DNA of 64,000 bases, taken from positions 1-64,000 of the forward strand of contig JAHBXV010000006.1 in assembly GCA_019636285.1 (NCBI GenBank), in the 5' to 3' direction. Below, piece after piece: positions 363 to 20,334 of the stretch (within the stretch, counting starts at the first letter, position 1; the number at the start of each line of letters is the position of its first letter). The DNA is from Planctomycetaceae bacterium. Lineage in GTDB: Bacteria; Planctomycetota; Planctomycetia; Planctomycetales; Planctomycetaceae. Both the position numbers and the translations under genes were made by a program. A model generated the notes under the pieces. It made no database searches. It had not been told where the DNA came from and saw only the letters and a list, made by a program, of their open reading frames with translations.

Positions 363-426
363 GCATCGGTGAAGATACTGCAAGACGCTGACACTTGCTG
401 TTTTGAGAAAGTCGGGCCGACGTCCC

Positions 427-3400: not shown

Positions 3401-3972
3401 CAGACCTCGAGGGGCGGCTTGAGAATCGGAAGAAAGAACTCCAGGCGATGCGGCAAGTTAACAATGGCACGCCGATCGTCCTGGGCGGGGCGCTGGTCGT
3501 CCCCGCCGGACTGTTGCGCGACTTGCGCGGCGATGAACCGCTCGATCCGGTGGCCGCCACGTTTGCCGTCGACCCCGCTGCCCGCCGCCGGATCGAGACA
3601 CTGGCGATGAATGCTGTGCGTAACGCCGAAGAGGCCGCCGGATGCCGTGTCGAGGATGTCTCAAAGCACAAATGCGGTTGGGATTTGACGTCTCATCCCC
3701 CAGCCGTGGAGGGCAAGCTGGCTGACCCGAAGCACATCGAAGTGAAGGGACGCATCAAAGGCGCTTCGACGATCACTGTGACCCGGAACGAGATGATGTA
3801 CGCCTTTAACCAGGGCGACAAGTTCGTCCTGGCCATCGTGTTGGTCAACGAGGATGACACGACCGACGGGCCGTACTACATCCGCCGTCCCTTTGATCGC
3901 GAGCCAGGCTGGGGCGTGTCGTCGATCAACTACGAGATCAACGCACTGCTGAAGAAAGCGGGGGCGACATGA
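427..3972 (+). CDS. SNF2/DEAD-like helicase with C-terminal DUF3883 (DrmD-like)
   Basis: Large superfamily 2 helicase/translocase of 1181 residues. Visible motifs are Walker A DPGAGKT (about 130-136), DEAH box (240-243), motif III TATP (277-280), then the second RecA lobe with [12 protein letters not shown] and motif [13 protein letters not shown] (600-610). The C-terminus carries a DUF3883-type domain with HIEVKGR (1103-1109), an E-x-K pattern like that of PD-(D/E)XK folds. An ATG at 427 is preferred over a TTG at 403. Helicases of this build occur in DISARM class 1 (DrmD) and in related helicase-methylase-ATPase clusters, where they are thought to act on invading DNA. Its stop overlaps the next ATPase start by 4 nt (ATGA), so it opens a translationally coupled operon. 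Helicase identity is firm; the DrmD relationship is inferred from architecture and neighbours. Confidence 0.9.
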
Positions 3973-5342
3973 TCCGACTTGAGGTTCTGCGTCTTCAGAA
4001 TTTCCGCTGCTTTGAAGATTGCACTATTGAATTCCGTCCTGACCTAACCGTTTTGGTCGCCCGAAATGGGCAAGGCAAAACGGCCCTCTTGGATGCCGTC
4101 GCGCTCTCTCTTGGTTTGTTCGTTGACACCATTGCGGGCACGTCTCAGTGGAAAGGCTTCAGACGGCGTGATGTGCGGCGACTCCTCAATGGCGAACAGG
4201 CGATGACACACGCGCCCTTCGTCCAATTTGAAGCGACAGCACAAATCGAGGATCATCGCCTCTCGTGGCGACGCTGGATGCGTGGGGATTCAGATCGAGC
4301 GAGATCCTCGACCAAAGACGCACGACCATTAACCGGTATCGCACAGCAACTGCACGAACGTTTGGGGACGACCGCGGAAAACCAAGCGGCGAACATCACC
4401 ATTCCATTGATTTCTCTTTATGGCACTGGACGCCGATGGGAACTGTATGGCACGCATGCAAGGCGACCGTCCATCACGCCACAGAACGAGCGCTGCATTG
4501 GATACGAGGACTGCTTGGCTGGCTCTGCCAGTTTCGGACTGTTCGCAGACTGGTACGAATCGATGTTTCTGGCGACAGTTGGGTCACCCGTAACTGGCGT
4601 CCAGAAAGCAAACCGGCCCGAACACCTCTTGGCCGCAGTCAATCATGCGGTGGAAAGCGTACTTGAACCCGAAACGGGATGGGGCGGACTTCATTGGGAC
4701 AATACGGAACGCCAACTGATGTTGACGCACCCAGTTCACGGTAGGTTGCCACTCGGCTACCTCAGCGATGGTGTGCGCAACACAGTTGCATTGGTCGCGG
4801 ATGTTGCCCACCGCTGTGCGCGATTGAATCCGCATCTTGGAGAAAACGCCGCTCAGATGACACCGGGAATCCTGCTGGTCGACGAAGTTGATCTGCACCT
4901 GCATCCGGAATGGCAACAGTCGATCATTCGCATGTTACGGGCCGCTTTCCGTGAGATTCAGTTGGTCGTCAGCACCCATAGCCCGCAAGTCTTGTCCACG
5001 GTCGACGTGAGTGCCATTCGTGTCGTTCGCTTTCACAACGGCAGCGTGCAGGTCAGTGCTCCACAGTTCCAGACGAAAGGCGTCGAAAGCGCAGACGTTC
5101 TGGCGACGATCATGGGAGTTGACCCTGTTCCGAAGGTGCCGGAGGCAAAATGGCTGAGTGACTACCGCGCAATGGTGGAGCGTGGTCAACACGCGTCAGT
5201 CGAGGGCGAGCAATTGCGAGAACTACTGATTTCGCATTTTGGAACGCATCATCCCCTCATTCTGGATTGCGACCGACTAATCCGGTTTACGCAATTCAAG
5301 AAGAAACGAGAGACTGAGGGAGCGGCTGATGCACAAGCTTGA
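3969..5342 (+). CDS. AAA/ABC-type ATPase, Septu PtuA-like
   Basis: A 457-residue RecF/SMC-like ATPase. The start [12 protein letters not shown] is the usual entry of this family, followed by a Walker A ARNGQGKT (31-38) in which the first glycine of GxNGxGKT is alanine. An LSDG signature lies near 265, Walker B LLVDEVD near 301-307 and the H-loop STHSPQVL further on. No TOPRIM domain is seen, so it is not an OLD nuclease. It overlaps the helicase by 4 nt and the HNH gene by 14 nt. An ATPase of this class directly followed by a TIGR02646-type HNH protein is the layout of Septu (PtuA-PtuB) and of the retron Ec78 effector; no reverse transcriptase is present. In PtuAB the ATPase controls nuclease activity. 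Base composition looks more AT-rich than the helicase, suggesting separate acquisition. Confidence 0.8.
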
Positions 5343-5979
5343 CCGCAATTCAGTGCCGGCCCCAACGTGCCTCGGTGCATATCACCACGGAACACACAGT
5401 TGGGATGACGTGGGTAAAACACCTGGACATAAAGAGGAGATTCGACAGCAACTCGAACTTTTGCAAGGGCGGAGATGCGCCTATTGTGAGGGGTCGCTCG
5501 ACGTTCTCGGGCAACACATCGAGCACTTTCGCCGTAAGCACATTTTCCAGAAACTTACATTTCATTGGGGCAATCTATTCTGGTCATGCGATCAAGACGG
5601 ACATTGCGGATGTTTCAAGGATCGTAAGTCTGGCCCTTACAATCCAAACGATTTGATTGATCCATCGCTTGATGACCCGGAACAGTATCTACACTTCTTC
5701 AGCGATGGGAGCATTCGATTGCGGCCCGGTCTGAATGCTGCGGCACAACGCCGTGCTGAAGAAACGCTTCGGGTCTTTAATTTGGACCAAGAGCATGGCC
5801 CGCTGCGTCATATGCGGCAAGCGCACTGCGCGGGCTACATTGACTTGGGGATTCAACTCGCGGAACTCGCGGTTGCCAGTACGCCTGAAGAATGGCTGCC
5901 TTTCCTGGATGAGGAATTGGCGAACACCCGTGATCTTCCATTTGCAACCGCGATCAAGCACACACTGACTCCTGCATAG
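5329..5979 (+). CDS. HNH endonuclease of the TIGR02646/PtuB type
   Basis: A 216-residue HNH nuclease. Residues [10 protein letters not shown] (48-57) supply the first CxxC zinc knuckle; HIEHFRRK (63-70) is the histidine core of the fold, and WGNLFWSC (80-87) brings the conserved Asn and a further Cys, with a C-rich CGCFKDRK stretch after it. This spacing (CxxC, xxEHF.PK-like, N-L-x-W-x-C) is that of the putative HNH endonuclease family found beside PtuA ATPases in Septu and in retron Ec78. It overlaps the ATPase by 14 nt, so the two are coupled. It would be the effector that cuts nucleic acid when the ATPase senses infection (known of the family; not shown here). The next gene starts 16 nt downstream, so the pair sits inside the helicase-methylase operon. 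Confidence 0.85.
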
Positions 5980-5995
5980 CAGGTCCGGATACCTG

Positions 5996-8893
5996 ATGCC
6001 AATATCAATTGTCTGTCCGAAGAAACTCATCGAGGTTGCTCTCCCGCTCGACGCTATCAACTCGGCAGCGGCGCGGGAGAAGTCGATTCGGCATGGGCAT
6101 CCCAGCACGCTGCACCTGTGGTGGGCACGGCGGCCGTTGGCTGCTGCGCGGGCGGTGATTTTCTCGCAACTGGTCAATGATCCCGAAGACCTGTGGCGTT
6201 GCCAGAACCCAGGCAAGGAGCCGAATCAACAGGTCAAGGGGCACTGGACGAAGGCCCGTGCAAAGCTGTTCGGGGTCATCGAGGATCTGGTGCTGTGGGA
6301 GAACACCACGAACGAGGCGGTTTTGGAGAGGGCCCGTGAAGAGATACGCAAGTCGTGGCGGGAAACGTGTGAACTCAACAAACACCATCCCGAGGCGAAG
6401 GAACTCTTCAACCCGGAGACGATGCCGGGGCTGCACGATCCGTTCGCTGGCGGCGGGGCCATCCCATTGGAGGCCCAGCGGCTCGGATTGGAAGCCTATG
6501 CCAGTGACCTGAACCCGGTCGCGGTGCTGATCAACAAGGCGATGATTGAAATTCCGCCGAGGTTCGCCGGGCGGCCGCCGGTCAATCCAGAGTCACGTCG
6601 CGACAAGGGGGCAACGCTGAAAACCTGGCACGGCGCCCAGGGCTTGGCAGAAGATGTGCGGTACTACGGCCTGTGGATGCGAGACGAAGCTTTCAGACGT
6701 ATCGGGCATCTATATCCGCCGGTCGAAATCACGGCCGAGATGGTCAATGAGCGGCCGGACCTCAAACCGTATTTGGGCCAGAAATTGACTGTGGTCGCGT
6801 GGATTTGGGCACGGACGGTGAAAAGTCCGAATCCGGCGTTCTCGAATGTCGAAGTGCCACTCGTCAGTACGTTCGTCCTCGGCAGTAAGGACGGCAAAGA
6901 AGCCTATGTGAAGCCGATAATCGAAAAGAGCGGATACTCGTTCACGGTGAGGATCGGAAAGCCTCCGCAAGAAGCGAAAGGCGGCACGACGGCTGGGAAG
7001 CGACAGGCATTTCGTTGCCTGATGTCGAATGTTCCAATGGATTACGACTACATTCGCACTGAAGGCAAGGCGGGACGGATGCGGCAACGGCTCATGGCTA
7101 TTATTGCCGAAGGAACAAAGGGTCGAGTTTACATCGCACCTACTGTGGAACATGAAACTCAGGCTGCGAAAGCGAAGCCTGAATGGGTGCCCGACCTGAA
7201 ATTGCCGGACAACCCGCGCGACTTCAAGACTCCGAACTATGGCATGACGACTTTTGGAGCCCTTTTCACGCCACGGCAGCTAGTTGCATTGACGACATTT
7301 AGCGATTTGGTGTCAGAAGCTCGGGGACGAATTCACCAAGATTCCGTCGCCGCCGGCCTCTCGGACCAAAATGGCTGTCTGGATTCCGTTGCTTCCGATG
7401 CCAAAGCATACGCCGAAGCCATCAGCGTGTACTTAGCGTTCGCAGTGAGCTACGCCACAAACTATTGGTCTGTCATCGCAACCCCTGCTGAGGGATTCAT
7501 TCGAGGCACTTTCTCCAAGCAAGCTCTTCCGATGACATGGGACTTCGCAGAGGCACCTCCATTCGGCGCAACCAGCGGGAATTGGCTGGCGGCAATCGAA
7601 TGGTCTACGAAGGCATTAGAGCTTCTCCCCGCCCGAGGTGTTGGTGTGGCTTCGCAGTGCGAAGCGCAGAAGCAACAGCTGTCTCAAAACAAGGTCGTTT
7701 CGACCGATCCGCCGTATTATGACAACATCGGATACGCTGACCTTTCCGACTTCTTTTACATCTGGCTTCGTAGGTCGCTTCGGGAAGTGTATCCCCAATT
7801 GCTGGCAACGATCGCGGTTCCCAAAGCTGAGGAACTCGTTGCCACCCCTTATCGACACGGAACAAAGCAGAAGGCTGAAAAGTTCTTCTTGGATGGCATG
7901 ACTGCCGCAATGCAGAAACTGTCCAAACAAGCTCATCCGTGCGTCCCCCTCACGATTTACTATGCCTTCAAGCAGTCAGAAACCGAAGCAACCGATGGGA
8001 CATCATCAACCGGGTGGGAAACCTTTCTAGACGCTGTGCTGAAGGCTGGCTTGGCGCTCACTGGAACTTGGCCAATGCGGACGGAGCGTTCCACACGGTC
8101 AATCAGCTTGGGGACCAATTCACTCGCATCGTCGATCATTCTTGTCTGCCGGCCTCGCCACACCGAGGCTACTTCTATCTCGCGTCGGCAGTTTATTCGG
8201 GAGTTGAACGAAACCCTGCCGTTGGCGCTCGACGCAATGACTCGTGAGAGCGAGGGACTCCATTCTCCTGTTGCTCCTGTGGACCTGTCGCAGGCGATAA
8301 TCGGCCCTGGCATGGCCGTTTTCTCAAGGTACAGCGCCGTTCTCGAGGCTGACGGCTCGCCAATGTCCGTGAAAACGGCGCTGCAGCTCATCAACCGCTT
8401 CCTGGCCGAAGACGACTTCGACGCCGATACCCAATTCTGTCTCCGCTGGTTCGAGCAGCACCATTGGGACGTTGGTCAGTTTGGTGAAGCAGACGTTCTG
8501 GCACGCGCCAAGGGAACGAGCGTCGATGGCATTAATCAAGCGGGTGTCTTGACGGCCGCAGGGGGTGGCAAAGTACAACTCCGCCGGCCAGCGGAATATC
8601 CCGCGGACTGGCGCCCGGCCACTGACCAACGTCTCCCGATCTGGGAAGCTCTCCACCAACTGATTCGCAGCTTCCGCTCAAATGGCGAGACAGGAGCGGG
8701 CGAGATCCTGGTGCAGGTCCAGTCGAAAGCCGAACCGGCCCGTCAACTGGCATATCGCCTCTACACCCTCTGCGAACGCGCCGGCCTCGCCGAGGATGCC
8801 CGTGCCTACAACGAGCTGATCACCTCCTGGTCCGCCATCGAATCCGCCGCCGCAAGCGTGTCGGGATCGAAGCAGAGAACCCTTTTTGAATGA
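5996..8893 (+). CDS. DUF1156-containing adenine-specific DNA methyltransferase
   Basis: A 965-residue member of the COG1743 group (adenine-specific methylases with DUF1156). The N-terminal DUF1156 segment spans about 10-60 (motif [20 protein letters not shown]). The SAM-binding motif I is [13 protein letters not shown] (148-160), followed by ASDLNPVA (motif II). The catalytic motif [10 protein letters not shown] begins at residue 571, so more than 400 residues separate motifs I and IV, as is usual in this family. The protein is predicted to make N6-methyladenine, marking self DNA. It lies 16 nt after the HNH gene and overlaps the next ATPase by 4 nt. Methylases of this type pair with SNF2 helicases and DUF499 ATPases in defence clusters; this operon has both. 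The middle of the gene (about 7,200-8,250) looks less GC-rich than its ends. Confidence 0.9.
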
Positions 8894-9957
8894 GTGGCAT
8901 TTATTCGATGCTCAATTCACTGTCCTTAAAGAACTTCACGGTTTTCTCAAAAACTACCTTTCAGTTCGCGCCAGGCCTTAATGTGGTTATTGGCGAGAAC
9001 GGGGCAGGAAAGACTCATGTATTGAAGGCGGCATATACCGTTGCCTATGTGAGCGCCTGGGGAAAGCGAGATTCGGGGACAGACACACCAAGTAAGGGGT
9101 ATTTAGAGAAATCGCTGGCGAAAAAGTTGCGAGGCGTGTTTCGGCCGGATTCGCTTGGTTGTCTCATTTCTCGTCAGTCCAGCCGCGTTCCGTGTAAGGT
9201 ACTAGTTAAGTTCAAGAAGAGGGCGATGCGTCTCGGGTTTTCCTTCAATTCTGCCAGCAAAACGGAGGTGGCCGTCGATCCGGTCCCAAGAAGCTGGGAG
9301 GGAGAACCACCGGTTTATATCCCGACTCGCGAATTGCTGACGATCTTTCCCAATTTTGTTTCATTGTATGATACGACAGAGCTTCCGTTTGAGGAGATGT
9401 GGCGAGACACATGCCTCTTGCTGGGTGCACCACTGGCACGCGGGGATCGCCTTAAGGAGATTGAGCGTCTTCTCGGCCCTCTGGAAGAGCTGCTCGGCGG
9501 GAAAGTTGAACTAGCTGATGGCAGGTTTTACCTCAAACACAGTTCCGGAAAGCTGGAAGCTCCATTGATGGCGGAGGGGCTGCGGAAAATCGCAATGATT
9601 GCGCGACTGATTGCCACGGGGGCATTGCTGGGCAGCGGCACATTGTTCTGGGATGAGCCCGAGGCGAATCTGAATCCCAAGGTCATCAAACTTGTCGCTA
9701 GAACGATTCTCCATTTATGCCGCTCAGGGGTTCAGGTTTTTATCGCAAGCCACAGTTTGTTTCTTCTGAGGGAACTTGACATCTTACTAAAAGATAAGGA
9801 GTTCAAAGACATAACGTCGCGCTTCTTTGGGTTGCACGTGACAGAATCAGGCGTTTCGGTTCAGCAGGGTGACTCGGTTGATGAAATCGGCCAAATCGAT
9901 GCCTTGCAGGAAGAGCTAAGTCAGTCCGATCGCTACCTCGATACGGAGGCGGAGTGA
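8890..9957 (+). CDS. AAA/ABC-type ATPase paired with a nuclease
   Basis: A 355-residue ATPase with the SMC/RecF-like plan: [13 protein letters not shown] entry strand, Walker A GENGAGKT (35-42), signature-like [13 protein letters not shown], Walker [13 protein letters not shown] (252-263) and H-loop [12 protein letters not shown]. It is shorter than the first ATPase of the operon and not obviously its duplicate. The start overlaps the methylase stop in an ATGA; an internal ATG at residue 7 (8908) is an alternative. Its stop overlaps the next gene in TGATG. ATPase plus small nuclease pairs are a common effector design (known); that this pair acts as one unit is inferred from the coupling. Codon use is visibly more AT-rich than that of the methylase or DUF499 genes, consistent with an inserted cassette. 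Confidence 0.8.
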
Positions 9958-10466
9958 TGCCAGCGTATGTTGAGGGAAACTTGACCTTTAGCTTTCCGCG
10001 ATACTGGAAGGTACTGAAGTACGATGATTCAGTCTTTCATGTCTCTGAGTTTCAGAGTACTTGCGGCGGCGCGAAGGCGATTGATTTTGTGGCTCTCGAG
10101 CCAAATAAGGCATGCTGCTGGATGATTGAAGTCAAGGATTATCGAGTTCACTGCCAGACAAATGCCGTCGACCTCGCCGCCATTGTTGCTCACAAAGTGC
10201 GCGATACGCTTGCCGGCCTGGCGGTAGCTAGGCTTTATGCCAGTCAGCAACACGAGAAGGTTCATGCACAGCGAGCTTTAAAATGCTCTGGACTACGCGT
10301 CGTGTTGCATATGGAGAATCCGGTCTCTTTATCGGCGTTGTTCCCGCAGCCGATAAACCCCGCAAATGTGCTTCAGGAACTCAAGCAGCGTTTGCGAGTG
10401 ATTGACGCTTCTCTTAAGGTGGTCTCGCTTACGCAGTCTGGCAGTGTGGCCTGGACCGTTAATTAA
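9957..10466 (+). CDS. Putative PD-(D/E)XK-like nuclease partner of the AAA ATPase
   Basis: A 169-residue protein without a named family that I recognise. The pattern AIDFVAL (Asp43) followed after a strand by WMIEVKDYR (Glu58, Lys60) is the D...ExK core of PD-(D/E)XK nucleases, and the length suits a single such domain. An upstream helix and a later alternation of helices and strands fit the fold. The ATG at 9957 shares one base with the ATPase stop (TGATG) and follows a good GGAGGCGGAG ribosome-binding site; a GTG at 9954 is possible. Working model: the ATPase at 8890 gates this nuclease, analogous to the ATPase-HNH pair earlier in the operon. Function is inferred from the motif only; a structure prediction would settle the fold. 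Confidence 0.6.
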   Translation: MPAYVEGNLTFSFPRYWKVLKYDDSVFHVSEFQSTCGGAKAIDFVALEPNKACCWMIEVKDYRVHCQTNAVDLAAIVAHKVRDTLAGLAVARLYASQQHEKVHAQRALKCSGLRVVLHMENPVSLSALFPQPINPANVLQELKQRLRVIDASLKVVSLTQSGSVAWTVN

Positions 10467-10481
10467 CTCACGAGGTTGAAT

Positions 10482-13328
10482 ATGAAGCCGTGGCGTGAGA
10501 TCGCCATTCCGCACCGGGACGTTCTGGAAGGGACCTTTCAACAGTCCGAGTTTGCGGCCGACATCACCGCTGTCCGACATGGTCGGGCGACGGTGGAGTA
10601 CCAGGACGCTGCGAAGTTCTTTGAGCGGACCTTCATCACCGAAGGGATGCGGCAACTATTGACTCAGGTCGCGCAGAGACTGGCCGGGACCGGCGGTGAA
10701 CCCGTCATTCAACTGCAAACGGCATTTGGCGGCGGTAAGACGCATACGCTGCTGGCGGTTTATCACCTGGCCACGCGACAGGCCGCGCTCTCGGAGTTGG
10801 CGGGGATTCCGTCGCTCATCGAGCAGGCGGGGTTATTGGATCTTCCAAAGGCTCACGTCGGTGTCTTGGACGGAACGCAACTTTCACCAGGACAGCCGTG
10901 GAAGCATGGCAGACTGACCGTCAAGACCTTGTGGGGCGAACTGGCTTGGCAACTCGGTGGCGCTGATACTTATGCCTTGGTGAAACAGGCCGACGAAACG
11001 GGTACTTCACCCGGCAAGGAGCTGCTGCGCAGACTTCTCGAAGACTGCTCTCCCTGCGTCGTTCTGATCGATGAGCTGGTCGGCTACATCCGCCAATTTC
11101 GGGAAGGCCAAGTGCTAAGCGGTGGCAGCTACGACAGCAACTTGTCGTTCGTTCAGGCGCTGACAGAAGCTGTCAAACAGGTTCCAAACGCCATTGTCTT
11201 GGCGTCGCTCCCGGAGTCGGAGGTCGAGGCTGGCAGCTCGGTCGGCGTGTCGGCTCTCCGGGCTCTCGAAAAAACGTTTGGCCGGGTCCAGGCTCTCTGG
11301 AAACCCATTGCGACCGAGGAAGCATTTGAGATCGTCCGCAGGCGGTTGTTCGAACCCATCCGGGACGGCAAGGCGCGCGACTCGGTCTGCCGATCCTTCG
11401 CGGATGCCTACGTCTCCGAGGGGGCGAGACTTCCCGCCGAGACTCAGGAGGGGCGGTACTATGACCGGCTTGTGCGCGCGTATCCGATTCATCCCGAGGT
11501 GTTCGACCGCCTTTATGAAGACTGGTCGACAATCGAAGGGAACTCGTTCCAGCGGACGCGCGGCGCCCTCAAGTTGATGGCAAAAGTCATTCATCGCCTT
11601 TGGAAGGACGACAATCGCGACTTGATGATTCTTCCCGGCAGCCTTCCGCTCCACGATGGCAGTACGCGAAACGAACTCACGTACTATTTGCCCGCGGGAT
11701 GGGATCCTGTGATTGAGAAGGACATTGACGGGGACCGGGCCGAAACCACCGAACTCGAAAATCGCGAGCCGCGTTTTGGCCAGGTCAACGCCGCGCGACG
11801 TGTTGCGCGCACGCTATTCCTGGGAAGTGCCCCGTCGTCGCTCTCCGTGAAGCCGGGAATTCGCGGCCTCGATCGTGCCCGCATTCTCCTGGGTTGCATT
11901 CAGCCGGAACAGAGTTCGTCGGTCTATTCCGATGCACTCAATCGCCTCGCCGACCGCCTGCATTATCTCAACAGTTCGGACGACAAGACCAAGGACCAAA
12001 CTCGTTTCTGGTTTGACACACGCGCGAATCTGCGGCGCGAGATGGAAGATCGCAAACGCCGGTTTGATGACGCTACCGATGTGCGCGGCAAGATCGGCGA
12101 AGTGCTGAAGAAGTTGGTCGGAAGCGCGGCGCTCTTCGATGGGGTCCATATCTATACGCCTCACGGCGACGTCCCGGATGACAGCGCCTTGCGCCTGGTT
12201 GTGCTACCGCCAGAACAGTGTCATTCCAGAGAGTTCGATCAGCCAGCCCAGCAGGCCGTGCTGGACTACGTCCGCCAGAATGGGGCCAAACCGCGATATC
12301 GTGGCAATCGGCTGATCTTCTTGGCTCCGGACATGGGAGCCCTCTCACGCCTGCGCGACGCAGCTCGAGTGGCGCTGGCATGGCGTTCGATTGTGAATGA
12401 CATGGCGGAGGTCAGGCTCGTCACCGATCAACTTCAGCAAAATCAGGCCAAGAAAGAGTTGGGTACGGCAGAGGACGTTCTGCCGCGGGCAGCCCGGGAG
12501 TGCTACAAGTGGCTGCTTTGTCCGGTGCAGAACTCACCCACCGATCCCAAGCCGACAGTCGAGGCTTTTGCTCTGGGGACCGGGAGCGGCTCGGTCGGAA
12601 CGGAAATGGAGCGGGTCTGTGACGAGAATGAACTCGTGATTGCGGCATGGTCCCCGATCCATCTGCGGGACAAGCTCAAGGAAGTTTATTGGAAGGATGG
12701 CAAGACCTGCGTTGGTGCAATGGCGTTCTGGGAAGATTCGCTGCGGTACCTGTATCTCCCTCGATTGAAGAATCGAGACGTGCTGGCAGAAGCCGTCCGC
12801 AAGGGAGCCACAAGCCAGGATTTCTTCGGCACAGCCTATGGACAGTCGGGCGAAAAGTTCGAAGGCTTTCAATTCGGCGATGCCGAGGTGCAGTTCGACG
12901 ACACGCTTCTGCTGATTCATCCGACGGCGGCCGCCGACTACCAGGCAGCCCACGCCCAGCCAGACTCGGTTCCAGACCCTGGCCCGATCTCGCCTGAAGC
13001 AGGTTCCGGGGCATTGCCAGTTGGTTCCGGTATCGGATCATCCGGGATTGATCAGCCGATAGGAACGGGACCGGTTTCCGCTGGTGCATCGGGGGCAAAG
13101 CCGAAGACTTTTTTTGGGTCAGTCGAGATCAATCCCTCGACGGCCAAGATGCGGCTGGTGCAGATTGCTGAAGAAATCATCAGTGTTTTGACCAGCGATC
13201 CGAATGGCACGATCAACGTCAATCTGGAGATCAACGCGGAATTCCCCTCGGGAGCGTCGGACCAGATCAGGCGGGCAGTGTCAGAGAATGCGGCAGCACT
13301 GGGGTTCAAGTCAAAGACCTGGGAGTGA
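10482..13328 (+). CDS. DUF499-family AAA+ ATPase of the helicase-methylase system
   Basis: A 948-residue predicted AAA+ ATPase of the COG1483/DUF499 family. Walker A is FGGGKTHT (82-89), a form typical of DUF499, and Walker B is [10 protein letters not shown] (193-202). The ATG at 10482, after an ACGAGG ribosome-binding site, is preferred over a TTG two codons upstream. The C-terminal third is Pro/Gly/Ser-rich (about 830-870) and ends in a small alpha/beta segment. DUF499 ATPases co-occur with DUF1156 methylases and SNF2 helicases in archaeal and bacterial defence clusters; their mechanism is not established. It begins 15 nt after the nuclease gene and is the last gene of the first operon, since more than 1 kb without a gene follows. 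It closes the helicase, methylase, ATPase core. Confidence 0.88.
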
Positions 13329-14246: not shown

Positions 14247-14256
14247 CTGGTTTTCT

Positions 14257-14287
14257 CAGAAAACCCCTATTTGTCAGGGGTTTTCTG
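14257..14287 (+). terminator. Strong hairpin, likely transcription terminator
   Basis: A perfect 12-bp stem, CAGAAAACCCCT with AGGGGTTTTCTG, around a 7-nt loop (ATTTGTC). The four T bases lie inside the 3' arm rather than after it, so efficiency is uncertain. It follows the tRNA-like fragment by 10 nt, as a terminator would follow a tRNA gene, and would also end transcription coming from the DUF499 operon. Confidence 0.6.
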
Positions 14288-14501
14288 CATTTCAGGCGCT
14301 ACAACCTGGGAATTGTGGATCCACGTGCTGACGACGCGAGCTGCGCCGAGTTTCGCAATAGCCACGTCCAGCCGCTGTTGGGATTGAGCGGCGCTCCCGG
14401 CATCTGACAATCCGCGGAATTTCCAAGACGCTCTCTTGCCGTCGCCTCTCCGCGCTCGTATAACCGTGACTTTGTTTTCAGTGTATTGTGTTTTCGGGGT
14501 G

Positions 14502-15152
14502 ATGGCGATGCTCGACCGTGCCGCAGATGCGGTCCGCCATTGTGAGACTCAGCTTCGCACGCTGATTGCCCAGGCTTCGGCAGCGGGTGACTACGATGCC
14601 GTCGACCGTCTGACGCAGTGGGCTCGCACGCTCTCCGCCCTTTTGTCTCAGGAAAACTCAGCGATTTCGCCCGGCGTCGGCGACAGTCCTGTCAGTGCGT
14701 CTGCAGGGTCGAGAGCGCCCGGTCCTCTTCCGGCGCATGTCGTGGGCGGCTCGATTGCCGGTGCTTTTCCCGCCTCCAGAACCCGCCATACAGCGAAACG
14801 GGGCGCAAAACAGGATTATCCCAGGTTCTCCCGGCAGCGGAACGACCTCGTCAAAACCGGCTGGTCAAAAAAGGACAGGCAGGAATACCAGCACCGCGCC
14901 CCTTGGGCCGTGGTGGAAGCGCTGGCCCGTCGCCTGAACGACGAGCGGGGCAAGGTCTTTACGTCCGACGATGTCTTCCCGTTGACCAGCCCCGACGGGA
15001 CCGACATACCGTCCTATCAGGCTTATTTGTGCCTCGCCTGGCTCAGATTCGAAGGTCTGGTTGTGCAGGAAGGCCGGCAAGGGTATTTCATATCTACCAA
15101 TACTGATGTTCTGGTGGGAGCACGCGAGCGGTGGGAGTCGATAGCAAGCTGA
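14502..15152 (+). CDS. Hypothetical protein, N-terminal helices plus probable winged-helix C-terminus
   Basis: A 216-residue protein I do not recognise. Residues 1-50 are helical (RAADAVRHCETQLRTLIAQ), 55-100 are Ala/Ser/Pro-rich and likely a linker, and 130-198 show helix-helix-helix-strand features of a winged helix (AWLRFEGLVVQEGRQGYFI at the wing). This suggests a DNA-binding or protein-interaction domain. ATG 14502 or 14508, just after a GGGG stretch, is chosen over the upstream TTG at 14436 because the extra N-terminus has no visible fold. It is the first gene after the 1.2-kb gap, on the same strand as the GHKL ATPase that follows 195 nt later, so it could be that unit's regulator or specificity factor. 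The function is unknown; the winged-helix idea rests on sequence pattern alone. Confidence 0.6.
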   Translation: MAMLDRAADAVRHCETQLRTLIAQASAAGDYDAVDRLTQWARTLSALLSQENSAISPGVGDSPVSASAGSRAPGPLPAHVVGGSIAGAFPASRTRHTAKRGAKQDYPRFSRQRNDLVKTGWSKKDRQEYQHRAPWAVVEALARRLNDERGKVFTSDDVFPLTSPDGTDIPSYQAYLCLAWLRFEGLVVQEGRQGYFISTNTDVLVGARERWESIAS

Positions 15153-15347
15153 TAGGAGCGCGAATGGTTGTCAGCTCAGGATAGCCTAATTTCCAGACTG
15201 CCGTGGTGACAGTTTGCCCATCCTTGCGTCATCATCGGCCTGTAGTTCCTCAAAGACATCTCCGACAGTTTCAAATTCACCTCGTCCGCAAAACAAACTG
15301 TATTGCAGGGCGTTTAAGTCTGAATTTCTTTAAATGAGGTCTGTTTG

Positions 15348-17276
15348 ATGGCCAAGTGGCATTTCAAACCACATGACGGATACGGCGATATTAGCCAGAG
15401 TTCATCCGCCGAGGCGTTTGAAGGGTCGGCAATCAAGGACTTGGCCACGAGTGTCGTTCGCGAAAGCGTGCAGAACGTGCTCGATGTGACGCACGATCGA
15501 ACTCAGCCGGCGCGAGTGCGTTTTACGGTCGTGGATACGTCCGCGGCGAATACCTCTTGCAGCGTCTGGTTCGACGGCCTGATGCGCCATCTGCAACTTC
15601 CAGGCGCCGGCGTGCCCGATGCCCCGAAACAAAATGAGCCATGCCGCTACCTGCTCATTGAGGACTTCAACACCTCGGGACTTGTGGGCGACTACAAGGC
15701 CCCCTATGTCCCCGGCACGGAGAACAACTTCGTCAACTTCCTCTACCATGATGGACTGACCGGAAAGATAAAGAAGCTGGGCAGTCGAGGCGTAGGGAAG
15801 ATCGTCCTTCTGCTTGCCAGTCGCGCCCGCGCGTTCTTCGCTTACACGAACCGTGTCGACGATCCCGCCGGCAAGCCGTTGCTGGTCGGGAAGTCGCTGC
15901 TGAAGTTCCGACAGGTCGGAGGCGTCTTGTATGATTCGGCGTGTTACTTCGTCGAATCGTGGGATGACGGAAAGCCCCGTGAACCCGTCGCAAGCAAAGC
16001 CGAACTGGCCCGCTTCCGAGAGGACTTCACTCTCTCGCGCTCGAATGAATCAGGGCTGAGCGTCGTGATTCCCTATCTCGATCCAAGCATCACGTTGAAG
16101 GATCTGCGCCGCTCTGTCGTCGAGGAATATCACTTCGCGATTCTCAACGAGAAGCTGGTCGTTGAACTGTCAAACGGATCATCGGTCGAGCGGATCGACG
16201 CCGATCACATCCCGGACGTCGGCGATGAGGAACTCTCAGCGCGTGTCGCGCTCGCTCAATATGCCCTGACGCACCCCGAGCCAGCGTTGCAGACAATGGC
16301 CCCGGCTGCTGGAGACAGTCAGAAACTCAGTGATACACTCGTGCCGGAGGCTGTCCGCGGTGCAATCCTCGATGCGTTGAATCAGCACGAGCGAATCGCG
16401 GTCCGCTGCCGTCTGCATATTCACCCGAAGGACGCTGCGGCTGTCGAGACCTGGTGCGATGTTTACTTTGAGTCTGTGGAGAATGTCCATCAGCGGCCCG
16501 TCTTCATGCGCGAGCTACTGCCGATTTCAGGGGAAGGCAAACCTTGCTCGCAGCTCCGCTCGCTCGTCTTGATCCGTCCTGGTCCTCTCGCCGATCTCCT
16601 GCGCGCCGCCGAAGGGGCGAACCACACGCAATGGAGCCCCCGCACTGACAATTTCAAACGGGCCTACAAAGGCCGGCTAGGCGAAATCGAATTCGTCAGC
16701 ACCTGCGTCAACCGGCTTGTTGAAATTGCCCGCGGCAACGCGACCGAGCCCGTCGGGGGAATTTCGACCTTCTTCTTCTCCGCCCCGCTCGACGACGAAG
16801 GTGGAAAGTCGAAGCACAAGGGAAAGAAAAAGCCCGGCTCCAAGCCCGAGAAGCCCGATGTCCCGGATGATGACATCGAGCCGGTTGGCTACCTGTTCAA
16901 TCAGGAGGCTGGCGGATTCACACTTCGCGGCCATCCCGACAAGCCCGTGCCAAAGCGAATCACCGTCCGCGTCGCCTACGACGTCATCCGCGGCTCGGCC
17001 TGGTCTGACTACGACCCGGATGACTTTGACCTCCGCAAGCCCAGAGGCGATGTGCGAGTCGTTGCCAGCAATGCCGATATTGAGCGGCCCGACCCGGGTA
17101 ACCGATTGATCATCAAGCCCACGGCCAAGGATTTCGAAGTCGCCGTCACCGGCTTCAACGAACAACTCGACGTGATCGTCGATCATCGCTCATCAGACAG
17201 GCCTCGCAAGCGAAAAGGGGAACCCGATGCCGGTGAAACGCTTGAACTTCACCAACCGCAGCAGACTCACGCGTGA
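15348..17276 (+). CDS. GHKL-type (HATPase) ATP-binding protein of a defence unit
   Basis: A 642-residue protein with an N-terminal GHKL ATPase: N-box RESVQNVLD (38-46, Glu39 and Asn43), G1-type IEDFNTSGL (104-112) and G2-type loop GSRGVGKIVL (145-154). This is the MORC/Hsp90-like nucleotide fold; ATP-driven dimerisation is typical of the class. The rest has no recognised domain; a Lys/Pro-rich linker (about 485-505) precedes a C-terminal beta-rich part. ATG 15348, after an AATGAGGT ribosome-binding site, is used rather than a TTG one codon earlier. Its last 50 nt overlap the next gene, so at least three genes are coupled. GHKL ATPases are recurrent in phage-defence clusters, and the neighbours support that role. 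The ATPase fold is well supported; the exact system is not identified. Confidence 0.75.
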   Translation: MAKWHFKPHDGYGDISQSSSAEAFEGSAIKDLATSVVRESVQNVLDVTHDRTQPARVRFTVVDTSAANTSCSVWFDGLMRHLQLPGAGVPDAPKQNEPCRYLLIEDFNTSGLVGDYKAPYVPGTENNFVNFLYHDGLTGKIKKLGSRGVGKIVLLLASRARAFFAYTNRVDDPAGKPLLVGKSLLKFRQVGGVLYDSACYFVESWDDGKPREPVASKAELARFREDFTLSRSNESGLSVVIPYLDPSITLKDLRRSVVEEYHFAILNEKLVVELSNGSSVERIDADHIPDVGDEELSARVALAQYALTHPEPALQTMAPAAGDSQKLSDTLVPEAVRGAILDALNQHERIAVRCRLHIHPKDAAAVETWCDVYFESVENVHQRPVFMRELLPISGEGKPCSQLRSLVLIRPGPLADLLRAAEGANHTQWSPRTDNFKRAYKGRLGEIEFVSTCVNRLVEIARGNATEPVGGISTFFFSAPLDDEGGKSKHKGKKKPGSKPEKPDVPDDDIEPVGYLFNQEAGGFTLRGHPDKPVPKRITVRVAYDVIRGSAWSDYDPDDFDLRKPRGDVRVVASNADIERPDPGNRLIIKPTAKDFEVAVTGFNEQLDVIVDHRSSDRPRKRKGEPDAGETLELHQPQQTHA

Positions 17277-18006
17277 GCAGGCCAACGTGCTGGTGCATCC
17301 CGGCCAGCCCGCCACCTTCGAGGCCGTGCTGAACCTCTCGCACCTTCCCGAATCCGCCGGCACGGCGCGAGTCTTCGTCGAAGCTTACCACCGTACCACG
17401 CGGATGCGTTTCCCGTTCGGCACCGTCGCCAAACTGATGCCGCCCACCCCGCTCGAACTGCGGCTGACCGAGTTCCCGGATTGGAAGGACGTCAGCTTTC
17501 GCGTGAAGGTGACAGACGTCAGCGAAACACCCGGCAGGATCATCGCCTGGGCGAACAATATTCATCCCAAAGGACCGGACGACGACCGGCAAAATGATCT
17601 GGTTCGCTGGAAAGATGCCGACTTGAACGGCCGACTGTGGGACATGGAATTTGGTGATGAAGGCCCAGTCGTGCTAGTCGAGAAGACGGTCGGCTACGCC
17701 AGCATCGGACAGGACGGACGATTCATCGCGGTTGCCTACCCTGAGATCTTCCGCCGTTCGCTCAATCAGGCGTTGCTGATTGAAGAGACATCGGGTGATG
17801 ATCCGGAACACTGGTTCACGGTATGGGCCAAGGGGTATCTCTCCCAAAAGCTCGGCCTGCCGCCTGTGCCGGAGGGTGCAGACACAAAGCAAGAGCGGCA
17901 GCAACGTCGCGACTGGATCGAGCAGGCCGTCGTCGCGTTCGGACGACAATTCAAGCTTGCCGATCAGTGGCTGACGGCATCTGGCATGAAGGGAGCGGAA
18001 GGATGA
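17227..18006 (+). CDS. Uncharacterised protein of the GHKL/DUF6339 unit
   Basis: A 259-residue protein without a family I can name. The N-terminal half alternates short beta strands (for example TARVFVEAYHR and SFRVKVTDVSE) and may be a beta-sandwich; the C-terminal half is more helical and charged (KQERQQRRDWIEQAVVAFG). There is no signal peptide or membrane segment. It starts inside the end of the GHKL gene (50-nt overlap) and its stop overlaps the DUF6339 start in ATGA, so all three products are probably made together and may form one complex. The C-terminal residues of the preceding protein and the N-terminus of this one are encoded by the same DNA in two frames. Confidence 0.7.
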   Translation: MPVKRLNFTNRSRLTREQANVLVHPGQPATFEAVLNLSHLPESAGTARVFVEAYHRTTRMRFPFGTVAKLMPPTPLELRLTEFPDWKDVSFRVKVTDVSETPGRIIAWANNIHPKGPDDDRQNDLVRWKDADLNGRLWDMEFGDEGPVVLVEKTVGYASIGQDGRFIAVAYPEIFRRSLNQALLIEETSGDDPEHWFTVWAKGYLSQKLGLPPVPEGADTKQERQQRRDWIEQAVVAFGRQFKLADQWLTASGMKGAEG

Positions 18007-18758
18007 AGTTCCGACGTTTCAATGATCTGGGCGTGAAGGCGTTCGCCGAGTACCTTGAGGCACTGCGCGCCGATGCCACGGTCGCCGTGCCGACGGATCT
18101 GTTGGCCAACCCGCGTCTGACCGAACCGCTGTCGGCATTGATCGAGGCCGAGCCGCCCGCATCGTTCGCCAGCCGGATGGCGTTCGCCCAATGGCTTCAC
18201 GCCGCCGCAACTGCCAACGGTGTCGACATTCCGCGCAATGACGCGGGTTTCTGGGCATGGCTGTCGCTGGCGCTGTTCGATCACGTCTGTCCGGCGGATG
18301 CGAAGGGGATGCGGAAGATCAAGGAAGATGCACGATACCTTCCGATGCTAGACTTGTCGCGGCGATACTACCGCCACGCTCTTGTCGGTCCGTTCTATGT
18401 CTACTGGATGTACCGTGACTCTCCCGAACAGGCGGCGGCGGTGCTCTGTGGGTCGCTCACGCAACTCAACGATGAAGCGTATCGACTCTTCGTCGAGAAT
18501 CAGCTAGTTGTCATGCCGTCCGCAGTTGGCGTCTTGACGAAACTCTATTACGACGGCACCACAGGTCGACTCAAGCCAAAATCGAAGACGAAAAAGCGTG
18601 GCTCGATACGACGATTAGCAACTTTTCTTACTCGCTTCGCACGGACACTTGATCTTGATGTCATTCCCGTAGAGCGACTGATCAGTATCCTGCCCTCGGA
18701 GTTTAACCGTTGGCGCGAGCCGCTGTTGTTCGACCCTGTTAAGCTTGAAAAACATTAG
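18003..18758 (+). CDS. DUF6339-like protein
   Basis: A 251-residue protein that resembles the DUF6339 family as I remember it: N-terminal FRRFNDLGVKAFAEYLEAL, a central FWAWLSLALFDHVCP and a later KIKEDARYLP with RRYYRHALVGPFYVYW. The function of the family is unknown. It is soluble and helical, with a basic patch at about 195-205 (KPKSKTKKRGS). It follows the unknown 259-residue protein with a 4-nt overlap and ends 20 nt inside the convergent HNH gene. Its place next to a GHKL ATPase, a nuclease and a DNA methylase remnant suggests a part in defence. Family assignment is moderately sure; role is inferred only. Confidence 0.6.
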   Translation: MKFRRFNDLGVKAFAEYLEALRADATVAVPTDLLANPRLTEPLSALIEAEPPASFASRMAFAQWLHAAATANGVDIPRNDAGFWAWLSLALFDHVCPADAKGMRKIKEDARYLPMLDLSRRYYRHALVGPFYVYWMYRDSPEQAAAVLCGSLTQLNDEAYRLFVENQLVVMPSAVGVLTKLYYDGTTGRLKPKSKTKKRGSIRRLATFLTRFARTLDLDVIPVERLISILPSEFNRWREPLLFDPVKLEKH

Positions 18759-19500
18759 TGCGGTGAAAATGTATTGCTTCTAGATCCGGTTGAAAACGTG
18801 TCGGGATCTGGAGTGAGATGCCTTCAATTTGGTCAAGTGAACACTTTAGCCTCGCGTCAGTGAAATTGTTCGCTAGGCGGCGCGAGACTACGACACACAA
18901 TTTGTCATCGAAAGTGAAAAATCCTCGATCGAATGCACGGTCTAAGAGCGCATTGAGGCAGAGACCGTTTCGTGGGTCAGCGCGGCGTTCAACCGAGTCA
19001 CTCCACGGGATAATGTGACTCGCCGTGAGAAGTTCGGGGCCAGCTATGCCGGATAGCGCGCATTTGAAATCATATGTTGTAAGCACTGCGGCTCGGAAAA
19101 AAGACTGAACGCGCCGAGCACGCACGAGCCGTTCGACCTCAGTCGGTCCGTTCGGGTGGCAGAGTTCAATCAAGGCGGGTTCATTGACGCCAGCAATTCG
19201 CACTGCGGCTTCCTCCGCTTCTGCGGCGAGCGATTCGGCGTTGTTTAAGAACTCATTCCAAATCTCGCGATCCGCGTTGCTGAGGTTCGGCAATCCGCGA
19301 ATGCCACGCGCCTGAAGCGCGGGATCTAGATTGGCGAAGTTGCACGCCTTCATCGCGATTGCATTCGGCGTGCGGCCGATTTGTTTCGCGAGGTCAATGA
19401 TCTCTGGATTGAGTCGATGCAGCTTCCCAAAAGGCAATCGCATATAAAGGCGAAGTGCCAAGAGTAGTTGATCGCGCGTCCAAAGATTGCTTCGCGCCAT
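18739..19500 (-). CDS. HNH endonuclease (restriction-like)
   Basis: A 253-residue protein with a C-terminal HNH_2-type nuclease domain: ASHIIPWSDS holds the core His, RNGLCLNALLDRAFDRG the Asn and later Asp/Arg, and FTFDD the closing strand. The N-terminal part, WTRDQLLLALRLYMRLPFG and IGRTPNAIAMKACNF, looks like a helix-turn-helix or target-recognition region; this layout is common in putative restriction endonucleases of the COG3440 kind. ATG 19500 (upstream GTGAGG) is preferred; a GTG at 19533 would add 11 residues. The gene converges on the DUF6339 gene with a 20-nt overlap and lies 135 nt downstream of a truncated C5 methylase on the same strand, its probable former partner. If active without that methylase it would need another source of protection, for example another methylase elsewhere. 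Confidence 0.85.
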   Translation of the reverse strand: MARSNLWTRDQLLLALRLYMRLPFGKLHRLNPEIIDLAKQIGRTPNAIAMKACNFANLDPALQARGIRGLPNLSNADREIWNEFLNNAESLAAEAEEAAVRIAGVNEPALIELCHPNGPTEVERLVRARRVQSFFRAAVLTTYDFKCALSGIAGPELLTASHIIPWSDSVERRADPRNGLCLNALLDRAFDRGFFTFDDKLCVVVSRRLANNFTDARLKCSLDQIEGISLQIPTRFQPDLEAIHFHRTNVFQA

Positions 19501-19635
19501 TCTCTGCCTCACATTACGATTGTGGTCGTTCACTCATATCAATTGTAGCGAAGGCATTCGGCAGCGATGAGATCGTTCGCTATAAATAAAATTTCGACCA
19601 AGGGTTCCGTCGCAAGCCAGAAATTGCAGGACATA

Positions 19636-20334
19636 TCAACTCGGTTCAGTGCTGTTAACGCGTCTCATCACAGGCCGGGGGCGCTTCAAGTCTTCCAGGA
19701 TTCGCTCGAATACGGGCTTCCCGTCAAGCTTGGCCGACAGCATCCCCTTGACGTTTTCCATCACGAACACCGCGGGCCAGTGGTCGGCGATAATCCTCAG
19801 ATACTCCCGGTAGAGCGACGAGCGGTGGTCGTCTTCGATCCGGTAGCCAGCCTTCCCCTTGTTCCGTGACCGGCCGACGACCGAGTAGGCCTGGCAGGGC
19901 GGTCCGCCGATCAGCACCCAGCGGCCGGCCGCGCCCCGGATGGCCGCGTCGATCCGCTGGAACAGCTCGCGGGGATCGTGTCCGGGGGCGCCGAGCTCGA
20001 ACTGTCGGGCTTCTTCGGCGGCCCGTTGCCACGCGTCGAACCAGCCCCTGTTTGCGGCCAGCAGGCGATCGGGGAACTCGGCGAGGGGGAATTCGCCGCG
20101 GAGCAGCTCATAGTACAACTCAGGGACGCTGTCCTTCTCAAACTGTCGGAAGAAGCTGCGGAGACGGAGCGTCTGCCAGGCCCACGGGTCTTTTTCGATG
20201 GAGAGGGCAATCTGAAATCCGGAACGACTCCGAGTGCTGATGCTTCCGGCGCGAGGGGGCGGAGTAAATGCGGAAAAACCTTCGCCCAGCCCTCCCGGCC
20301 CCGCAAACAGATCGATCACGGGAATCGTCAACAC
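19636..20334 (-). pseudogene. Truncated C5-cytosine DNA methyltransferase
   Basis: The 232 residues are the N-terminal half of a Dcm-like methylase: motif I IDLFAGPGGLGEGF (7-20), catalytic motif IV GGPPCQAYSVVG (143-154, Cys147) and motif VI ENVKG (193-197). The frame then ends after RRVNSTEPS; the target-recognition region and motifs VIII-X, needed for activity, are missing. Intact family members are usually well over 300 residues. No continuation is seen in other frames in the 135 nt before the HNH gene, so the 3' part was probably deleted. It starts divergently from the MFS gene. The insertion of about 90 residues between motifs I and IV is normal for some subgroups. It is classed as a pseudogene because the SAM-binding and catalytic motifs survive but the DNA-binding half does not. 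Confidence 0.85.

What the first reader, a model, noticed from the sequence alone, without database searches (positions are those of the whole stretch)
14502..18758. Second, unnamed unit: winged-helix protein, GHKL ATPase, unknown protein, DUF6339-like protein
Three genes are coupled by 50-nt and 4-nt overlaps and start just after the first operon. GHKL ATPases (MORC/Hsp90-like) are repeatedly found in defence clusters, but this gene set is not one I can match to a described system. The 259-residue protein has no known family, and the long overlap suggests fixed stoichiometry.
Basis: partly seen in the sequence, partly recalled or inferred. Interest (0 to 1): 0.72.

Follow-up and report, generated by a model that had tools for sequence, protein, structure and literature searches.

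The report
Three-gene GHKL ATPase restriction-modification module
The three genes are real and travel together across at least 14 bacterial phyla, often beside DNA cytosine methylases and DNA-cutting enzymes; they are a distant, undescribed version of an ATPase module used in anti-virus restriction systems, and in this genome the partner methylase is broken.

Summary
In detail: a GHKL ATPase (15348-17276), a 259-aa protein (17227-18006) and a 251-aa protein (18003-18758) overlap by 50 and 4 nt. In 288-294 Planctomycetota genomes all three occur in the same 10 genomes and nowhere else, apart from one truncated relic. Of 80 loci from diverse phyla, 58 hold the complete adjacent block. The trio does not depend on the neighbouring Hma operon (HmaA-like gene in 3 of 86 loci). 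Its recurrent partners are a C5-cytosine methylase, Vsr, and varied nucleases or effectors (EcoRII-like, HNH, GmrSD, AIPR). The ATPase carries the ExxxH hallmark of the published paraMORC2 family. Profile comparison links all three proteins, in order, to GHKL-X-DUF6339 loci (PADLOC candidate PDC-M33; Z1/Mza-type restriction loci). Neither small protein matches Pfam or a solved fold: one is a beta-sandwich plus helices, the other all-alpha. Best explanation: an ATP-gated DNA clamp module that couples a C5 restriction-modification system to interchangeable nucleases. Two clades lack the R-M partners. In this host the only C5 methylase found is the truncated copy next door and no Vsr was found, so this copy may be decaying or repurposed. 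New variant of a known kind.

The parts
14502..15152 (+). Putative winged-helix-like protein (216 aa); lineage-specific fourth gene upstream of the trio
   Evidence: ORF. No Pfam/PADLOC/NCBIfam match. Homologs in L013, L039 and L061 lie directly upstream of the trio GHKL gene in R-M-bearing planctomycete loci. In 288 genomes the only other good match is the trio-bearing G233.
15348..17276 (+). GHKL ATPase with paraMORC2-type ExxxH motif (642 aa)
   Evidence: GHKL motifs and E422xxxH426 invariant in 48 relatives. PADLOC PDC-M33A E=4.8e-17. hhalign to DUF6339-side GHKL 99.8%, E=7.5e-30.
17227..18006 (+). 259-aa protein (P259): beta-sandwich N-domain plus helical C-domain
   Evidence: No family match. 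68-member alignment. AF2 pLDDT 90. Only weak FN3/Ig-like matches in PDB. Profile match to protein X of DUF6339 loci, E=1.3e-5.
18003..18758 (+). 251-aa all-alpha protein, distant relative of DUF6339 / PDC-M33C
   Evidence: No Pfam match for any of 58 members to DUF6339. AF2 pLDDT 92, no fold match. Profile match to DUF6339 proteins E=2.2e-5 over 215 columns.
18739..19533 (-). HNH restriction endonuclease, convergent with the trio (20-nt overlap)
   Evidence: Pfam HNH_2 E=9e-15; PADLOC HNH E=3e-87. A homologous HNH gene lies beside C5 methylase and trio in L052.
19636..20334 (-). Truncated C5-cytosine DNA methylase (residues about 3-209 of a 548-aa relative; the C-terminal part is missing)
   Evidence: Pfam DNA_methylase E=6e-20. 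Only C5 methylase match in the whole host genome. Similar methylases stand next to the trio in L012/L022, L015, L062, L099.

Best explanation
The trio is a paraMORC2-type GHKL ATPase module of C5-methylation restriction-modification systems. Shown: three-gene co-occurrence and order, intact ATPase motifs, ExxxH hallmark, recurrent linkage to C5 methylase, Vsr and interchangeable nucleases, and distant homology of all three proteins to GHKL-X-DUF6339 loci. Inferred: the ATPase dimerises on ATP and closes as a clamp around DNA; P259 (beta-sandwich plus helices) and the all-alpha DUF6339-like protein bind it and the DNA as adaptor or sensor subunits; the complex licenses a partner nuclease (HNH, EcoRII-like, GmrSD, AIPR-type or Vsr) on DNA that lacks the host's cytosine methylation. 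In the window the trio and HNH nuclease are intact but the methylase is truncated, so this copy is probably decaying, or its nuclease acts without the original self mark.
For: Complete block in 58 of 80 loci, typical 4-nt overlaps. The same 10 of 288-294 genomes for each of the three families. C5 methylase, Vsr or EcoRII-like nuclease in the locus in 24 of 86 loci, in 25 of 39 tree rows (window included) outside two derived clades and 0 of 46 inside them. Partner identities by Pfam: EcoRII-C, Vsr, GmrSD, AIPR, HhH-GPD, second GHKL. paraMORC2 hallmark and R-M context as published (PMC2292703); motif invariant here. Profile links to DUF6339 loci that also carry Z1, PD-(D/E)XK, C5 methylase or Vsr genes. 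Trio with C5 methylase on a Rhizobium plasmid. Host methylase truncated and unique, no Vsr.
Against: A 28-row clade (Proteobacteria, Nitrospinota and others) and an 18-row planctomycete clade keep the trio (or parts) with no R-M genes nearby, and neighbours of the first are mostly ordinary genes. No physical interaction, ATPase or DNA-binding data. The S5/transducer domain was not modelled. The clamp mechanism is by analogy to MutL, MORC and topoisomerases. Many loci are short MAG contigs.
Confidence: 0.5

Rival explanations
1. Autonomous defence system: the three proteins alone sense invaders and act, with the all-alpha DUF6339-like protein as an enzyme of new fold (invariant H125, Y182, R204, D217, E233; nearly invariant R104, R124, Q211). 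R-M genes are merely frequent neighbours.
For: Strictly conserved polar residues in the DUF6339-like protein. A 28-row clade with trio and no R-M genes. The trio is the constant part while nucleases vary.
Against: R-M linkage outside the two derived clades is far above that inside them. No known catalytic signature or fold match. No phage challenge data.
Confidence: 0.2
2. Repair cofactor: the trio is a MutL-like partner of the short-patch repair of T:G mismatches that C5 methylation creates, not a restriction component.
For: Vsr in 16 loci and a HhH-GPD glycosylase beside the trio in L020. E. coli MutL works with Vsr (discussed in PMC2292703).
Against: EcoRII-like, GmrSD, AIPR and HNH proteins are also partners; the window genome has no Vsr; DUF6339-side relatives sit with Z1 and PD-(D/E)XK proteins.
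Confidence: 0.1
3. In this genome the trio is a relic of an R-M system that is being lost (the window copy no longer works as defence).
For: Only C5 methylase found in the genome is truncated, no Vsr. The window GHKL departs from 13 of 70 strongly conserved positions, the most of 48 sequences, next 8. Long branch. A trio relic exists in G198.
Against: All three frames are open with ATPase motifs intact; HNH is intact. P259 and the DUF6339-like protein are not outliers. Divergence may reflect a distinct lineage. No close relative for a selection test.
Confidence: 0.2

Closest known systems
paraMORC2 GHKL family in restriction-modification systems (Iyer, Abhiman and Aravind 2008, PMC2292703)
   Same: GHKL ATPase with ExxxH motif; operons with cytosine methylases, Vsr and restriction nucleases
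   Different: The parts of that paper read here do not describe the two small partner proteins; many trio loci lack helicases and two clades lack R-M genes
PADLOC candidate PDC-M33 (A GHKL 627 aa, B 289 aa, C about 250 aa)
   Same: Three components of matching sizes; A model matches the window GHKL (E=4.8e-17); C model matches DUF6339 proteins
   Different: B and C models do not match the window trio or relatives; only profile-profile comparison with DUF6339-side proteins links them. No paper in the held library names PDC-M33 or DUF6339
Mza-type systems (MzaC Z1 helicase, MzaD PD-(D/E)XK; phage defence reported by Gao et al. 2020, from memory)
   Same: L111, a DUF6339 locus homologous to the trio, carries MzaC- and MzaD-like genes next to GHKL-X-DUF6339, C5 methylase and Vsr
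   Different: No Z1 or MzaD-like gene was seen near the trio itself
VcSduA / paraMORC3 Shedu (PMC12137116)
   Same: GHKL ATPase proposed to control a nuclease in phage defence, with experimental protection
   Different: Nuclease is fused in VcSduA; here the GHKL protein has no nuclease domain match and has two separate partners

Membership tests
paraMORC2 GHKL ATPases | GHKL ATP-binding motifs intact | tested here: met
   RE..QN, ED.NT.GL.G, G..G.GK in window; invariant core residues in 48 relatives
paraMORC2 GHKL ATPases | ExxxH motif C-terminal to the GHKL core | tested here: met
   E422 and H426 invariant in alignment A5; aligned with the same motif in DUF6339-side GHKLs; shuffled window protein shows E...H..W in 1.2%
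paraMORC2 GHKL ATPases | S5-fold domain after the GHKL domain | not tested
paraMORC2 GHKL ATPases | R-M operon context (methylase, Vsr, nuclease) | tested here: met
   24 of 86 loci plus window; absent from two derived clades
MORC family proper | GhXhhpXXRhl motif in S5 domain | tested here: not met
   0 of 48 trio GHKLs; no positive control for the regex was available (the second GHKL of L058 also lacks it)
PADLOC PDC-M33 | A component (GHKL) | tested here: met
   E=4.8e-17, 59.9 bits, partial coverage
PADLOC PDC-M33 | B component | tested here: not met
   PDLC04583 finds no match at E<=10 in the host or the other trio genomes searched; Enterococcus B-like protein vs P259 profile E=0.18
PADLOC PDC-M33 | C component | tested here: not met
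   PDLC04586 misses the window and relatives but matches DUF6339 proteins, to which the window family is linked at E=2.2e-5
Pfam DUF6339 (PF19866) | Match to the curated model | tested here: not met
   No hit in window or in 58 relatives at E<=1; no hit in G000
Pfam DUF6339 (PF19866) | Distant homology by profile-profile and gene position | tested here: met
   Prob 76.5%, E=2.2e-5 over 215 columns; crossed controls E=0.03 and 0.37; same third position after GHKL
Hma / DUF499 BREX-related system | Trio is an obligate part of the Hma operon | tested here: not met
   HmaA-like gene in 3 of 86 trio loci, HmaC in none

The most novel reading that the evidence does not exclude
The trio is an autonomous three-protein immune machine, not only an R-M accessory: in one widespread clade it works without methylase or dedicated nuclease, and the all-alpha DUF6339-like subunit is an enzyme of unreported fold and chemistry switched on by a GHKL clamp.
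Probability: 0.18. Interest if true: 0.8.

Novelty: new variant of a known kind. Interest (0 to 1): 0.52.

Why it matters
It defines a conserved three-protein unit of the paraMORC class in which two partners were invisible to Pfam, and joins it to DUF6339/PDC-M33 loci in bacteria and archaea. Because the trio is constant while methylases and nucleases change, it isolates what the GHKL clamp does in restriction and makes that testable. Two clades without R-M genes, one losing its subunits stepwise, offer natural experiments on which parts need each other.

Tried and rejected
Pfam, NCBIfam and PADLOC scans of the two small proteins and relatives: nothing significant. PDB sequence profiles for all three: nothing. 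Fold searches: weak FN3/Ig-like matches for P259, none for the DUF6339-like protein. Idea that P259 is a PD-(D/E)XK nuclease: rejected, the model is a beta-sandwich plus helices. Idea that the trio belongs to the Hma operon: rejected. Idea that the 184-nt overlap of the listed 17823 ORF is real: rejected, the conserved start is 18003. Single-sequence comparison with an Enterococcus plasmid AIPR-GHKL-B-C set: the GHKL matches, B and C inconclusive.

Full report
What is there. The window lies in contig C70 of a 6.37-Mb genome that is 99.8% complete, in phylum Planctomycetota (inferred: genomes drawn from its phylum are Planctomycetota records in the named collection, e.g. G047 = L022). From 403 to 13328 runs an Hma-type operon: HmaA 403-3972, HmaB 5996-8893 and HmaC 10476-13328, with a PtuA-like gene and an HEC-02B-like gene nested inside. 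After a 1.17-kb gap come, on the same strand, a 216-aa protein (14502-15152), a GHKL ATPase (15348-17276), a 259-aa protein (17227-18006) and a 251-aa protein (18003-18758). Overlaps are 50 and 4 nt. Convergent with these lie an HNH nuclease (18739-19533) and a truncated C5 methylase (19636-20334). G+C is 0.52-0.62 from 1 to 20 kb and 0.61-0.65 beyond, so the island probably ends near 20.4 kb.

Is the block real? A search of 294 Planctomycetota genomes with the GHKL protein hit 10 including the host. All nine others carry homologs of the 259-aa and 251-aa proteins directly downstream in the same order. Independent profile searches with each small protein hit the same ten genomes of 288; the 251-aa family has one extra hit, a truncated gene in G198 without partners. 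A scan of 84,980 genomes gave 337 relatives, best 80 kept. Of these, 58 hold the complete adjacent block and 68 hold GHKL plus P259; several of the rest are cut by contig ends. They come from at least 14 phyla by record titles, with the usual caution for metagenome bins. Median gap is -4 nt (GHKL to P259) and -1 nt (P259 to the third gene).

What the proteins are. The GHKL protein has intact ATP motifs and an invariant ExxxH (E422, H426) in alignment A5; it has no Pfam match but matches PADLOC PDC-M33A. ExxxH is the published hallmark of paraMORC2, a family placed in R-M systems with cytosine methylases, Vsr and nucleases (PMC2292703). P259 is modelled confidently (pLDDT 90) as a beta-rich N-domain and a helical C-domain; solved structures give only weak FN3/Ig-like matches. 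The 251-aa protein is modelled as all-alpha (pLDDT 92) with no match in PDB or viral models. It has invariant G10, W84, H125, Y182, R204, D217 and E233.

The DUF6339 link. Pfam DUF6339 does not hit the 251-aa family. But the DUF6339 loci examined show the same architecture, GHKL - X (about 300 aa) - DUF6339: L111 with Z1, PD-(D/E)XK, C5 methylase and Vsr; L112; plasmids of Agrobacterium, Rhizobium, Synechococcus and haloarchaea. Their GHKLs share the ExxxH motif. Profile comparison with eight DUF6339-side loci (six for the GHKL) gives E=7.5e-30 for GHKL, 2.2e-5 for the third protein over 215 columns and 1.3e-5 for P259 against X; crossed controls give 0.03 and 0.37. DUF6339 proteins match PDC-M33C. 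So the window trio is a distant sister of PDC-M33. It is not a member by model: B and C models miss it.

Context. Clustering of neighbours showed C5 methylase in 23 loci, Vsr in 16 and an EcoRII-like nuclease in 6 (identities). Single loci add GmrSD (L015), AIPR (L050), HhH-GPD glycosylase (L020) and a second GHKL (L058). On the GHKL tree, R-M-linked and unlinked rows are mixed except for two clades: 28 rows from several phyla and 18 planctomycete rows, none R-M-linked, against 25 of 39 elsewhere with the window counted (rows are not independent and contigs are short). The planctomycete clade shows trio, GHKL plus P259, and GHKL alone. Neighbours of the first clade are mostly ordinary genes, with scattered defence genes. 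The Hma operon is not a regular companion.

The window copy. The host's only C5 methylase match is the truncated neighbour, covering residues 3-209 of a 548-aa relative. There is no Vsr. The window GHKL departs from 13 of 70 strongly conserved positions, the most of 48, though its ATPase motifs and ExxxH remain. This copy is therefore either decaying or working with a different self-protection rule.

How it most likely works (inference). By analogy with MutL, topoisomerase and MORC ATPases, ATP closes a GHKL dimer on DNA; P259 and the all-alpha protein act as adaptor or sensor subunits; the complex directs an interchangeable nuclease to DNA without the host's C5 methylation. None of these steps was shown here. 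The main rivals are an autonomous immune machine, a Vsr-type repair cofactor, and, for this copy, a relic.

Limits. Only the 80 best relatives were kept from the genome scan; R-M absence is judged within at most 10 kb and often less. Homology of the small proteins to DUF6339 and X rests on eight sequences each. Gao et al. 2020 (Mza) is cited from memory.

Noticed in passing
window 403-13328: The first operon is a PADLOC Hma system (DUF499-centred BREX-related system) with other defence genes nested between its core genes: PtuA-like 3969-5342 plus a 216-aa gene, and HEC-02B 8890-9957 plus a 170-aa gene.
   Followed up: partly
window 18739-20334 (-): Intact HNH restriction nuclease next to a truncated C5 methylase that is the only C5 methylase found in the genome; how the host survives the nuclease is unexplained.
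   Followed up: partly
L055-L087 (Planctomycetaceae clade): A planctomycete clade keeps the GHKL gene next to repeated chromosomal neighbours while the partner genes vanish stepwise (trio, then GHKL plus P259, then GHKL alone): possible domestication.
   Followed up: partly
L020:5541-6179: A HhH-GPD base-excision glycosylase follows the C5 methylase beside the trio where other loci have Vsr, a likely functional replacement.
   Followed up: no
L058:8135-9988: A second, different GHKL ATPase (HATPase_c_3) sits between the C5 methylase and the trio GHKL.
   Followed up: no
L149:4719-9482: A mobilizable Enterococcus faecalis plasmid carries AIPR - GHKL - 288 aa - 262 aa, sizes as in PDC-M33.
   Followed up: partly
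L148:7602-8078: Truncated relic of the third trio gene in genome G198, a few kb from a resolvase-type recombinase gene.
   Followed up: partly
window 14249-14290: Closely spaced palindromic copies of GGTTTTCTCAGAAAACC / CAGGGGTTTTCTG upstream of the wH gene; one scores as a terminator-like hairpin.
   Followed up: no
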